A stretch of 64,000 bases of DNA, taken from positions 1-64,000 of IMG/VR virus record IMGVR_UViG_3300025941_000001, one strand, 5' to 3'. Shown in pieces: positions 7,201 through 12,995 of the stretch. The stretch comes from a virus. The position numbers and the translations under genes were made by a program. The notes under the pieces are model-generated. The model saw nothing but the letters and a program-made list of their open reading frames with translations, was not told the DNA's origin and made no database searches. Position 1 is the first letter of the stretch. The number at the start of each line of letters is the position of its first letter.

Positions 7201-7323
7201 ATTCTCTTCGGTGATGCGCGCGATAGCGACAGTCAGCGTTAGCCCGCTTCGTTGTGGGCAGCCCACGGACGGCGAGACCTTGCAAGGCTCGCGCGCATCT
7301 CCGAAGTGAACCGGAGAAGACCA

Positions 7324-8676
7324 ATGCCGCAACGTACCGACCCGCACCAAGCTCGCGCTCGTGAACTCTGCATCGCCGCCGGGCTCGACCCGGACGGCCG
7401 ACGCGGCGAGGGCCGAGGCCATCCCATCTGGACCGAGTACCGCGACGCGGCGCGCAAGGAAGCGAACGCGGTCGAGCAGGCTCGGCTCGCATCCGAGATA
7501 GCCGCGATGACGGTGCCGGTGCAGACGGCCGAGTTCGCCGACGCTCCGCTCACGATCATGGGCGAGCACGACGAGGGCACCATCGCCCAGATGCGCAATT
7601 GCATGAAGATCGGCAACGTGGTCGGCGGCGTGATCTGCGCTGACGGTCATCTGGGATACGCGCAGCCGGTCGGCGGCGTGATCGCCTACAAGGATCACAT
7701 CAGCGTTTCCGGTGTCGGCTTCGACATCGGCTGCGGCAACATGGCGGTACGCCTCGACGTGAAGCACGCCGAGATCGCCGAGCGTCTGCCGACGATCATC
7801 CATGACGTGCAAAAGGTGATCTCATTCGGCATCGGTCGCACGAACGACGAGAAGGTCGAGCACGCGTTGTTCGACGACGCCGCGCTCTGGGATCAATCCG
7901 ACATGCGCGACTATCGGCAGAAAGCCGCCGGGCAACTGGGCACGGTCGGCTCGGGCAACCATTATGTGGACATCCTTCGCGATCTCCACGACGATCACGT
8001 TTGGATTGGCGTGCACTTCGGTTCGCGAGGCCTCGGCCACACGTCGGCGACGAAGTACATCAAGCTGGCCGGTGGCAAGGACGGCATCAACGTCGCGCCG
8101 ACCGTGCTCGACGTGCACAGCGAGATCGGGCAACGCTATATCGCTGCCATGACGCTTGCGGGCTCCTACGCCTACGCCGGGCGCGAGTGGGTCGTCGAGC
8201 GCGTGCGCAAGATCATCGGCGGCGAGGTGACGAAGTCGGTGCACAATCATCACAACTACGCATGGCAGGAAGAGCACAACGGGCAGAAGCTCTGGGTCGT
8301 GCGCAAGGGCGCAACGCCTGCGTTCCCGGGGCAACTCGGTTTCGTCGGCGGCTCGATGGGCGACGATGCGAAGATCATCGAAGGCATCGACGGTGCCGAG
8401 GCGAAGGCCGCGCTCTACTCTACTGTCCACGGCGCGGGCCGGGTCTTCGGCCGCAACGAGGCCAAGCGTCGGTTCACGCGCGCCGAGATGGATCAGTGGT
8501 TGCAGGCTCGCAACGTGATCCTCGTGGGCGCTGACCTCGACGAAAGCCCAATGGCTTACCGACGCCTGCCCGAAGTTCTGACGCACCACGCGGGCTCTGT
8601 GCGCGTTGTGCACAACCTCCGGCCGACTGCGGTCGCCATGGCGGGCGCGGGAGAATTTGATCCGTTCAAGGACTGA
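7324..8676 (+). CDS. rtcB: RNA-splicing ligase RtcB
   Basis: Start ATG 7324 has GGAGAAG upstream; the frame is open 72 nt further but without a ribosome site. 450 aa, usual for the family. Signature GVGFDIGCGN (metal-binding Cys), GTVGSGNHYVDI, HNHHNYAW, and HGAGRVFGR containing the His that is guanylylated. RtcB joins RNA ends carrying 2',3'-cyclic phosphate (or 3'-phosphate) and 5'-OH using GTP and Mn2+, the ends left by many anticodon nucleases. The tRNA cluster begins 230 bp downstream behind a strong promoter, so repair of cleaved tRNA is the likely job. A GTGGGC-A-GCCCAC palindrome at 7254-7266 in its leader could be an operator. Confidence 0.95.
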   Translation: MPQRTDPHQARARELCIAAGLDPDGRRGEGRGHPIWTEYRDAARKEANAVEQARLASEIAAMTVPVQTAEFADAPLTIMGEHDEGTIAQMRNCMKIGNVVGGVICADGHLGYAQPVGGVIAYKDHISVSGVGFDIGCGNMAVRLDVKHAEIAERLPTIIHDVQKVISFGIGRTNDEKVEHALFDDAALWDQSDMRDYRQKAAGQLGTVGSGNHYVDILRDLHDDHVWIGVHFGSRGLGHTSATKYIKLAGGKDGINVAPTVLDVHSEIGQRYIAAMTLAGSYAYAGREWVVERVRKIIGGEVTKSVHNHHNYAWQEEHNGQKLWVVRKGATPAFPGQLGFVGGSMGDDAKIIEGIDGAEAKAALYSTVHGAGRVFGRNEAKRRFTRAEMDQWLQARNVILVGADLDESPMAYRRLPEVLTHHAGSVRVVHNLRPTAVAMAGAGEFDPFKD

Positions 8677-8906: not shown

Positions 8907-8985
8907 CAGGGCGTGGGGGAGTTTGGCCGTCCCCGCGTGGCCCGGACCCACGAGATCGCAGGTTCAAATCCTGTCGCCCTGACCA
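8907..8985 (+). tRNA. tRNA-Pro (CGG)
   Basis: Acceptor CAGGGCG/CGCCCTG, discriminator A and encoded CCA. D stem GGGG/CCCC, anticodon stem CGTGG/CCACG with loop CCCGGAC, T arm GCAGG-TTCAAAT-CCTGT. All stems pair. Oddity: position 33 is C rather than the nearly universal U. Confidence 0.9.
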
Positions 8986-9021
8986 TTACCATCACATCGA
9001 CGACTACCCAACGCTAAGCCT

Positions 9022-9095
9022 GCGGGCTTGGTGTAGCGGTAGCACAACGGGCTCTGAACCCGTCAGTCTGGGTTCAAATCCTAGAGCCCGTGCCA
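9022..9095 (+). tRNA. tRNA-Gln (CTG)
   Basis: Acceptor GCGGGCT/AGCCCGT (G1-U72 wobble), discriminator G, encoded CCA. Anticodon stem ACGGG/CCCGT, loop CTCTGAA with normal U33; T arm CTGGG-TTCAAAT-CCTAG. The most regular member of the cluster. Confidence 0.92.
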
Positions 9096-9098
9096 TTC

Positions 9099-9174
9099 GT
9101 CGATGTAGCTCAGTGGTAGAGCAGTCCCCTCGTAACGGACAGGTCGAAGGTTCAATTCCATTCCATCGGCACCA
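9099..9174 (+). tRNA. tRNA-Thr (CGT), irregular
   Basis: Acceptor GTCGATG/CATCGGC, D arm GCTC/GAGC, anticodon loop CTCGTAA. The anticodon stem has a C31-C39 mismatch, and the T-stem GAAGG pairs with CCTTC only if an extra A is bulged out (CCATTC). CCA is encoded. May be degraded, or may fold with the bulge. Confidence 0.8.
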
Positions 9175-9180
9175 TTTCAC

Positions 9181-9258
9181 GACAGCGTAGCTCAGCCCGG
9201 TAGAGCGCCGGGCTCATAACCCGGATGTCATAGGTTCAAATCCTATCGTCTGTCACCA
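9181..9258 (+). tRNA. tRNA-Met (CAT), bulged acceptor stem
   Basis: Anticodon loop CTCATAA on a stem CCGGG/CCCGG whose three G:C pairs resemble initiator tRNA, but position 1-72 is G-C, unlike a bacterial initiator. T arm ATAGG-TTCAAAT-CCTAT pairs fully. Acceptor GACAGCG pairs with CGTCTGTC only with one U bulged. Could also be an Ile2 tRNA read by lysidine modification. CCA encoded. Confidence 0.85.
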
Positions 9259-9260
9259 AT

Positions 9261-9337
9261 GCCCAGTGTAGCTCAGCGGGGAGAGCGCGCGACCGATAAT
9301 CGCGAGGTCGCCGGTTCGAACCCGGCCACTGGCACCA
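9261..9337 (+). tRNA. tRNA-Ile (GAT), C33 and bulged acceptor stem
   Basis: Anticodon stem CGCGA/TCGCG, loop CCGATAA, so position 33 is C. T arm GCCGG-TTCGAAC-CCGGC is perfect. The 5' acceptor reads GCCCAGTG against CACTGGC, i.e. one extra C. CCA encoded. Confidence 0.87.
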
Positions 9338-9342
9338 TTCCC

Positions 9343-9418
9343 GGGCCGCGTAGCTCAGCGGGAGAGCATCTGTTTTGCAAGCAGAGGGTCGTCGGTTCAA
9401 ATCCGACCCGGTCCACCA
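9343..9418 (+). tRNA. tRNA-Ala (TGC), bulged acceptor stem
   Basis: Anticodon stem TCTGT/GCAGA, loop TTTGCAA, T arm GTCGG-TTCAAAT-CCGAC. The 5' acceptor strand is GGGCCGCG against CCGGTCC, one extra C. CCA encoded. Followed by CTCGAC-ATG-GTCGAG (9423-9437) and GTCGGA-ATAA-TCCGAC (9454-9469) hairpins that may end or process the transcript. Confidence 0.87.
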
Positions 9419-11710: not shown

Positions 11711-12099
11711 CATCGCTGGAGGCAAAGAGGCACGCGCGCTACAACCGATCTCCGAAGGGCAGGGAGCGTCGGCGCAAGTATCAAAGATCGCCCAAGTACC
11801 TCGACCGAAAACGTACCTATCAATCTTCGCCGAAGGGGCGAGCAACAGACAGGGAATATCGCACATGGTATCGAAAACAAAAACGGACGCCGAACGTCTC
11901 GCTGACGCCAACGACATCATCCGAGCCAAGCAAAACCAAATCAAAGCGCTCGAAAAAGAACTGCGCAATCGCGCAGCCGTCAACGACACGGCAGAGAGCC
12001 TCCGGGAAAGCATCTTCGGCCTCGATGCCTACACGCCCGAGCCGCCGAAGTGGCTCGTCGAGCCGCACAAGAAAGGCTCCATCACGGGCGTCCCGCTGA
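11707..12099 (+). CDS. Very basic protein with SPKGR-type repeats, overlapping next gene
   Basis: Starts in an ATGA overlap at 11707. Residues 1-55 contain three copies of a roughly 15-residue unit (RYNRSPKGRERRR, KYQRSPKYLDRKR, TYQSSPKGRATDR). After residue 53 the frame overlaps the phosphoesterase gene for 235 nt and its composition (S, T, R, P) is that of a shadow. Either a long overlap or an indel removed a stop. The repeats resemble nucleic-acid-binding basic tails. Confidence 0.5.
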   Translation: MTSLEAKRHARYNRSPKGRERRRKYQRSPKYLDRKRTYQSSPKGRATDREYRTWYRKQKRTPNVSLTPTTSSEPSKTKSKRSKKNCAIAQPSTTRQRASGKASSASMPTRPSRRSGSSSRTRKAPSRASR

Positions 12100-12995
12100 T
12101 CCTCGCGTCGGACTGGCACTGGGGCGAGACCGTGGACCCCGATCAGGTTGGCGGCATGAACGCCTTCAACCGAGCCATCGCCAAGAAGCGCGTGGACATC
12201 TTCGGCAAGGCCGTGATCGATCTGTGCTTCAACCACATGACCTCGCCGACGTATCCGGGCGTCGTCTTCTGTGTCGGCGGTGACATGATCACGGGCGGCA
12301 TCCATGAGGACCTCCGGGAGACGAACGACGGTCCGGTGACGCTGTCCGTGATGGAGGTGCAAGAGAACCTCATCGGCTTCATCACGATGCTGGCCGACAG
12401 GTTCGGCAAGGTGTTCGTGCCGTGCGTGCCGGGCAATCACGGACGCACGACGCTCAAGCCTCGTGCGAAGAACCGCGTCTTCGACAGTTGGGAGTGGGTC
12501 ATCTATCAGAACCTTGAGAAGTGGTTCTCGAAGGACCCGCGCGTCACTATCCACGTCCCCAACGAGGTGGACGCCCACTTCGCGATCTATGGACACCGCT
12601 TCATGCTCACGCACGGGGACACGCTGGGCGTGAAGGGCGGCGACGGCATCATCGGTGCGCTCGGCCCCATCGCACGCGGCGCGATCAAGGTCGGCCGTTC
12701 CGAGGCGCAGTGCGGCCGAGACTTCGACACGCTGCTCATCGGGCACTATCACACGTATATCCCCCGGGGTGACGCTGTGCCGGTGCTGGCGAACGGCTCA
12801 CTCATCGGTTACAACGAGTACGCCCGGCTGTTGCTCCGTGCGGGGCCGACGCGTCCGACGCAAGCATTGGCTTTCATCCATCCCCGACGCGGGATCACGG
12901 CTCAGTGGCCGATCTATCTCGACGGCGACGAGCGCCGCAAGCCGGGCTCGACCGCGTGGTGCTCGTGGGATACGAACACTCCAAAAATCGTTTGA
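11865..12995 (+). CDS. Calcineurin-like metallophosphoesterase, 376 aa
   Basis: All metal-site motifs are present in order: SDWHWGE, GGDM, GNHGR, LTHGDTLG and GHYHT. An N-terminal 45-residue helical stretch precedes the catalytic domain. I choose ATG 11865 because the upstream open frame (to 11661) overlaps other genes and reads poorly. Related phage enzymes act on DNA ends or nucleotides (Mre11/SbcD-like or general phosphatases). Followed by a strong terminator. Confidence 0.85.
   Translation: MVSKTKTDAERLADANDIIRAKQNQIKALEKELRNRAAVNDTAESLRESIFGLDAYTPEPPKWLVEPHKKGSITGVPLILASDWHWGETVDPDQVGGMNAFNRAIAKKRVDIFGKAVIDLCFNHMTSPTYPGVVFCVGGDMITGGIHEDLRETNDGPVTLSVMEVQENLIGFITMLADRFGKVFVPCVPGNHGRTTLKPRAKNRVFDSWEWVIYQNLEKWFSKDPRVTIHVPNEVDAHFAIYGHRFMLTHGDTLGVKGGDGIIGALGPIARGAIKVGRSEAQCGRDFDTLLIGHYHTYIPRGDAVPVLANGSLIGYNEYARLLLRAGPTRPTQALAFIHPRRGITAQWPIYLDGDERRKPGSTAWCSWDTNTPKIV

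What the first reader, a model, noticed from the sequence alone, without database searches (positions are those of the whole stretch)
8907..9418. tRNA cluster with C33 anticodon loops and single-base bulges
Of six tRNAs, two have C instead of U33 (Pro loop CCCGGAC, Ile loop CCGATAA). Four have one extra base in a stem: A in the T-stem of Thr, U in the 3' acceptor of Met, C in the 5' acceptor of Ile and Ala. Thr also has a C31-C39 mismatch. Only Gln is fully regular. Large genes in the window are intact, so random sequencing indels are not an obvious explanation for four hits within 330 bp. Altered anticodon loops in phage tRNAs are known to evade tRNA-cleaving defences; bulges could have a similar purpose, or mark decay.
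Basis: partly seen in the sequence, partly recalled or inferred. Interest (0 to 1): 0.68.

Follow-up and report, generated by a model that had tools for sequence, protein, structure and literature searches.

The report
Phage tRNAs with conserved stem bulges
A bacteriophage carries six tRNA genes, four of which have one extra base at a fixed place in a stem; the same oddities recur in other phages, including isolated ones, so they are real and preserved, and probably help the tRNAs slip past bacterial defences that attack tRNAs.

Summary
Pro and Ile have C33. Thr, Met, Ile and Ala each carry one extra base in a stem. This is neither sequencing error nor decay. A 93.6%-identical phage from another metagenome repeats every oddity. 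Relatives with 79-82% identical portal protein keep most of them while the stem pairs around them change by compensation. In this phage group 15 of 17 Thr/Met/Ile/Ala tRNAs are bulged, against 0 of 18 others. The same isotype-site combinations recur in phages without a detectable portal homologue and in isolates: Sphingobium phage Lacusarx has the same Met bulge, Vibrio phages nt-1 and D484 and Mesorhizobium phage Cp1R7A-A1 have initiator-Met bulges. Background in viral tRNAs is about 0.5%. The bulged Ile pattern has no match in 84,980 prokaryote genomes. C33 in tRNA-Ile(GAU) is in 20 of 111 viral tRNAs, and its pattern matches 0 of 399 Pseudomonadota genomes. An RtcB RNA ligase lies directly upstream. 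Best reading: working phage tRNAs altered so that host tRNA-inactivating effectors recognise them poorly: C33 against anticodon nucleases (known idea), acceptor/T-stem bulges against acceptor-reading toxins (new, inferred). Function is untested; passive inheritance remains possible.

The parts
7252..8676 (+). RtcB-family RNA ligase ORF (474 aa, TTG start) directly upstream of the tRNA cluster
   Evidence: Pfam PF01139 E=8e-67; phrog_1075; catalytic Cys/Asp/Asn/His motifs conserved in the alignment with PDB 4dwr; about 98% identical in L012
8907..8985 (+). tRNA-Pro(CGG), C33, 11-nt D loop, A37, no bulge
   Evidence: same CCCGGAC loop in L012, L033 and L071
9022..9095 (+). tRNA-Gln(CTG), regular apart from a G1:U72 wobble
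9099..9174 (+). tRNA-Thr(CGT), extra A in the 3' T-stem strand between positions 62 and 63; C31.C39 mismatch
   Evidence: bulge kept in L012, L013, L033 (A) and L071 (G) with compensatory stem changes; also L164, L222, L313
9181..9258 (+). tRNA-Met(CAT), elongator-type D stem, extra U in the 3' acceptor strand between positions 67 and 68
   Evidence: kept in L012, L033 and isolate Lacusarx (L009); missed by ARAGORN
9261..9337 (+). tRNA-Ile(GAT), C33, extra C in the 5' acceptor strand (positions 2-4)
   Evidence: bulge kept in L012, L013, L033; also L164 and an L162 CAT tRNA; pattern has 0 matches in genome contigs
9343..9418 (+). tRNA-Ala(TGC), extra C in the 5' acceptor strand between positions 6 and 7; G3:U70 kept
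   Evidence: kept in L012, L033; also L160 and L161

Best explanation
The six tRNAs are working phage tRNAs. The extra bases and the C33 substitutions are preserved features, not damage. Most likely they make the phage tRNAs poor substrates for host effectors that inactivate tRNAs during infection. C33 removes the conserved U33 and U-turn used by anticodon nucleases. The single-base bulges, all in the stacked acceptor/T helix and fixed in site by isotype, distort the surface read by toxins that modify or cut the 3' end (aminoacyl-tRNA acetyltransferases, toxic alarmone synthetases, acceptor-cleaving RNases), while the ribosome and synthetase still accept the tRNA. The RtcB ligase next door probably repairs tRNAs that do get cut. 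Shown: presence, conservation with compensatory changes, isotype and site specificity in this group, recurrence in other phages, near-absence from bacterial genomes, RtcB homology with its catalytic residues. Inferred: function in translation, evasion as the selective reason, and the identity of the effectors.
For: All oddities are identical in L012, and the few changes inside its tRNAs are pair-compatible or in a loop. Thr bulge kept in L071 with 7 of 17 stem pairs changed on both sides and a different bulge base; Met bulge kept in Lacusarx with 7 of 17. Group: 15 of 17 Thr/Met/Ile/Ala bulged, 0 of 18 others. Recurrence in phages without detectable portal homology: L160, L161 (Ala), L222, L313 (Thr), and initiator-Met 3' acceptor bulges in isolates nt-1, D484 and Cp1R7A-A1. 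In viral samples such bulges are in 9 of 121 initiator-like tRNAs against 4 of 2172 others, p=1.4e-9. Bulged Ile pattern: 0 in 84,980 genomes. C33 in Ile-GAU: 20 of 111 viral, 0 of 399 Pseudomonadota genomes while the U33 form is found in 149. AtaT reads G4-G6:C67-C69 of tRNAfMet (PMC7595197), the tract that the initiator bulges interrupt. CdiA-CT Kp342 and EC3006 cut tRNA-Ile at 70-72 (PMC9071432). FaRel2 reads acceptor pairs of Gly/Thr tRNAs (PMC11559606). RtcB neighbour.
Against: No expression, charging or toxin data. No effector is known to target all four isotypes, and the phage's host and its defences are unknown. The Thr bulge lies in the T stem, outside the FaRel2 contacts. The window Met has an elongator-type D stem and no G-C tract, so the AtaT match applies to other phages' initiators, not to it directly. 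CDI toxins are weapons between bacteria, not phage defences. L013 has unbulged Met and Ala. In the unbiased viral sample the exact Ala and Ile bulges were absent (0 of 142 Ala, 0 of 111 Ile), so they are rare outside this group. Counts are of sequences, not independent events. A bulge fixed once and tolerated could persist without a function.
Confidence: 0.5

Rival explanations
1. Tolerated relics: the bulges arose once in a phage tRNA lineage at sites that synthetases, EF-Tu and the ribosome tolerate, and were spread by descent and gene transfer. Selection keeps the stems pairing but is indifferent to the bulge.
For: Bulged tRNAs in other phages are about 70-87% identical to the window's, compatible with old shared ancestry or transfer. 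The sites are plausibly permissive: the bottom of the acceptor stem, one T-stem site, a C-run.
Against: In this group four isotypes are bulged (15 of 17) and none of the other isotypes (0 of 18). Single-base deletions would remove them easily, yet they persist while much of the stem sequence turns over. In initiator-Met tRNAs the bulge base (A, T or G) and exact site (67^68 or 68^69) vary while a bulge is kept. Bacterial tRNAs of the same isotypes almost never carry them.
Confidence: 0.28
2. The bulges tune normal tRNA handling: they adjust EF-Tu or synthetase affinity, block mischarging, or mark phage tRNAs as distinct from host tRNAs when the phage itself degrades host tRNAs.
For: All four bulges lie in the acceptor/T helix, the EF-Tu-binding half. 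The Ala bulge leaves the G3:U70 identity pair in register. Isotype-specific placement would suit synthetase or EF-Tu tuning.
Against: No phage-encoded tRNA nuclease was recognised among the proteins scanned (most are unannotated). Bacterial tRNAs meet the same EF-Tu and synthetase demands without bulges.
Confidence: 0.17
3. Sequencing indels or decaying tRNA pseudogenes.
For: Four indel-like departures within about 330 bp; the Ile extra base is in a C-run; ARAGORN misses one tRNA.
Against: Identical in an independent assembly, kept with compensatory changes in others, same kinds of bulge in isolated phages, all six score well above the Rfam cut-off.
Confidence: 0.02

Closest known systems
Phage tRNAs with anticodon-loop mutations predicted to evade tRNA-targeting defences (van den Berg et al. 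2023, PMC10264068)
   Same: Phage tRNA cluster with altered anticodon loops; C33 in Pro and Ile is the same kind of change
   Different: That work treats anticodon loops; searches of the paper for acceptor stem and indels found nothing. The conserved acceptor/T-stem bulges are a different alteration.
Phage tRNAs that neutralise retron or PARIS effectors (T5 and others; PMC11555353, and PARIS work cited in PMC11559606)
   Same: Phage isoacceptors that are not recognised as substrates restore translation under tRNA attack
   Different: There function was shown by experiment, and PARIS cleaves the anticodon loop; here only sequence evidence exists and the bulges are at the other end of the tRNA
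Acceptor-stem-reading toxins: AtaT (PMC7595197), FaRel2/CapRel toxSAS (PMC11559606), CdiA-CT EC869/Kp342/EC3006 (PMC9071432), Cas12a3 (PMC12851939)
   Same: They read or cut the part of the tRNA where the bulges sit; AtaT reads the bottom-half G-C tract of initiator tRNA
   Different: They are candidate opponents, not the same kind of object; none is linked to this phage, and CDI toxins are not phage defences
RtcB RNA ligase (PF01139)
   Same: Catalytic motifs are conserved and the gene is adjacent to the tRNAs
   Different: Substrate and activity untested; divergent from solved RtcB proteins

Membership tests
Functional tRNA (RF00005) | Cloverleaf scoring above the Rfam gathering score with encoded CCA | tested here: met
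   six tRNAs at 47.8-63.1 bits, gathering 29; CCA encoded in all
Functional tRNA (RF00005) | Purifying selection on structure | tested here: met
   changes between relatives are mostly compensated on both sides or keep the pair
Functional tRNA (RF00005) | Transcribed, processed, charged and used | not testable with these tools
   needs tRNA-seq or Northern analysis in infected cells
Defence-evading phage tRNA (anticodon-loop type) | Anticodon-loop change absent from host isoacceptors | tested here: inconclusive
   C33 in Ile-GAU: 20 of 111 viral tRNAs; 0 of 399 Pseudomonadota genomes match the C33 pattern, 149 match the U33 one; met for bacteria at large, but the actual host is unknown
Defence-evading phage tRNA (anticodon-loop type) | Resistance to a defined effector | not testable with these tools
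   no assay possible
RtcB ligase | RtcB domain with metal-binding Cys/His and the guanylylated His | tested here: met
   PF01139 E=8e-67; DIGCG, GSGNH, GVHFGSRGLGH, HN and STVHGAGR motifs aligned to PDB 4dwr

The most novel reading that the evidence does not exclude
Phages carry an isotype-specific set of stem bulges in the acceptor/T half of their tRNAs (Ala 6^7, Ile 1-4, Met 67^68, Thr 62^63), kept by selection as a shield against acceptor-reading tRNA toxins. This would be a second layer of tRNA counter-defence besides anticodon-loop changes.
Probability: 0.4. Interest if true: 0.82.

Novelty: new variant of a known kind. Interest (0 to 1): 0.62.

Why it matters
Why phages carry tRNAs is a long-standing question. 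Known counter-defence work concerns the anticodon loop, while several recently described defence effectors and toxins read the acceptor and T arms. Conserved, isotype-specific stem bulges that are almost absent from bacterial tRNAs give a directly testable sign of evasion at that end of the molecule, and may point to the isotypes that unknown effectors attack. Some gene finders miss such tRNAs (ARAGORN misses the window Met; the Lacusarx Met is not annotated), so they are probably under-reported.

Tried and rejected
Sequencing error and decay: rejected. Host-derived bulged tRNAs: the Ile pattern gave no hit in 84,980 genomes; the Ala pattern gave three: one native-looking Ala(CGC) in a Paucibacter MAG that can also be read as a C6.C67 mismatch, one truncated tRNA, and one stretch that is not a tRNA. 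RNAfold alone: gives a cloverleaf-like MFE with the bulge for Thr but not for every tRNA, so folding energy was not used as evidence. Several parser calls (5' acceptor 'bulges' at position 7 with unusual 8-9 bases, 5' T-stem bulges beside long variable loops) were treated as artefacts and removed by the strict filter. Pfam on ten further ORFs gave nothing. Paper searches for bulged phage tRNAs or C33 found no prior report in the open library; subscription literature was not searched.

Full report
OBSERVATION. The window is part of a 93,824-base IMG/VR phage contig. Infernal finds all six tRNAs and ARAGORN five; a seventh, regular Asn(GTT) lies at 86829 of the contig. A cloverleaf parser that allows one bulge per stem confirms the finding: C33 in Pro (CCCGGAC) and Ile (CCGATAA); C31.C39 in Thr; and one extra base in the Thr T stem, the Met 3' acceptor strand, the Ile 5' acceptor strand and the Ala 5' acceptor strand. 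With the extra base left out, each of these four stems pairs fully. The Ala register keeps G3:U70, the alanyl-tRNA synthetase identity pair (established knowledge). For Ile a G-1 with a C1.C72 mismatch is an alternative reading.

NOT ERROR, NOT DECAY. L012, a contig from another metagenome with an identical portal protein and 93.6% identity over this region, has every oddity. Inside its tRNAs three bases differ: G:U to G:C in the Pro T stem, U:G to C:G in the Thr acceptor, and a Gln D-loop base. More distant relatives (portal 82% in L013, 79% in L033; L071 with 87% ATPase identity) keep most of the same sites: Thr in L013, L033 and L071, Ile in L013 and L033, Met and Ala in L033. Against the window, the L071 Thr tRNA has 7 of 17 stem pairs changed on both sides and carries G instead of A as the bulge. 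The Met tRNA of isolated Sphingobium phage Lacusarx also has 7 of 17 changed and keeps the U bulge; it is not annotated in that record. In the window, L012, L013, L033 and L071 together, 15 of 17 Thr/Met/Ile/Ala tRNAs are bulged and 0 of 18 others.

BEYOND THE GROUP. Scans for the bulged forms found the Ala bulge in L160 and L161 and the Ile bulge in L164 and in an L162 CAT tRNA. No portal homologue was detected in L160 and L161, and only distant ones in L162 and L164. L164 also carries the Thr bulge, which was not searched for. Scans blind to bulges gave 1905 distinct viral-contig tRNAs, of which a strict filter bulged. Two of these are the Thr bulge at the same site (L222, L313). Initiator-like Met tRNAs (A11:U24) stand out: 3' acceptor bulges at 67^68 or 68^69 in 9 of 121 against 4 of 2172 others, Fisher p=1.4e-9. 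Isolates Vibrio nt-1, Vibrio D484 and Mesorhizobium Cp1R7A-A1 have them too. These are counts of sequences, not of independent events. The exact Ala and Ile bulges of the window were not met in the blind sample, so they are rare outside this group and a few others.

HOST CONTROLS. The bulged Ile pattern has no match in 84,980 prokaryote genomes. The bulged Ala pattern has three, one of them a plausible tRNA that can also be read as a mismatch. C33 in Ile(GAU) occurs in 20 of 111 viral tRNAs, a strong excess over other isotypes (p=4.6e-13 for non-U33). The C33 pattern matches 0 of 399 Pseudomonadota genomes while the U33 pattern matches 149. The host of this phage is unknown. tRNA similarity to Sphingobium and Erythrobacter phages and portal similarity to Roseobacter phage RDJL3 suggest an alphaproteobacterium.

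NEIGHBOUR. ORF 7252-8676 is an RtcB-family RNA ligase. Its catalytic motifs align with solved RtcB. In many relatives tRNAs lie close to RtcB.

MECHANISM. Phage tRNAs with altered anticodon loops are already proposed to escape anticodon nucleases (PMC10264068); C33 fits that. All four bulges lie in the acceptor/T helix. Published effectors read that surface: AtaT needs the G4-G6:C67-C69 tract of tRNAfMet (PMC7595197), which the initiator bulges interrupt; CdiA-CT Kp342 and EC3006 cut tRNA-Ile at 70-72 (PMC9071432), opposite the Ile bulge; [quoted passage not shown] Cas12a3 engages acceptor stem and T arm (PMC12851939). These are correspondences, not tests. The window Met is elongator-like, and the Thr bulge is outside the FaRel2 contacts.

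VERDICT. The features are real and conserved, and the tRNAs are under structural selection. Evasion of tRNA-inactivating effectors is the best single explanation, at about 0.5. Passive inheritance of tolerated bulges is the main rival.

Noticed in passing
L009:3042-3116 (KY629563.1, about 67004-67078): Lacusarx carries an unannotated tRNA-Met(CAT) with the same U bulge as the window Met and with C33 (CCCATAC).
   Followed up: yes
L015, L016, L018, L024, L030, L035 next to the RtcB match: In six RtcB relatives a tRNA-Pro(UGG) lies within 1-10 nt of the RtcB match; in the window a tRNA-Pro is also the first tRNA after RtcB. A lasting RtcB/tRNA-Pro linkage.
   Followed up: partly
window 8907-8985 and relatives: Phage tRNA-Pro(CGG) has A37 and an 11-nt D loop; bacterial tRNA-Pro normally has G37 (own knowledge), so TrmD methylation would be absent.
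   Followed up: no
window 12098-12186 (-): ARAGORN calls a tRNA-Gly here that the Rfam tRNA search of the whole contig does not support; probably false.
   Followed up: partly
L421:1972-2045 (-): A Paucibacter MAG tRNA-Ala(CGC) can be read with the same 6^7 C bulge or as a C6.C67 mismatch; the only bacterial candidate seen.
   Followed up: partly
L045 (contig 3300044713_000194): Another phage contig with 36 tRNAs has a Thr(GGT) 5' acceptor bulge and a Met T-stem bulge at different sites.
   Followed up: no
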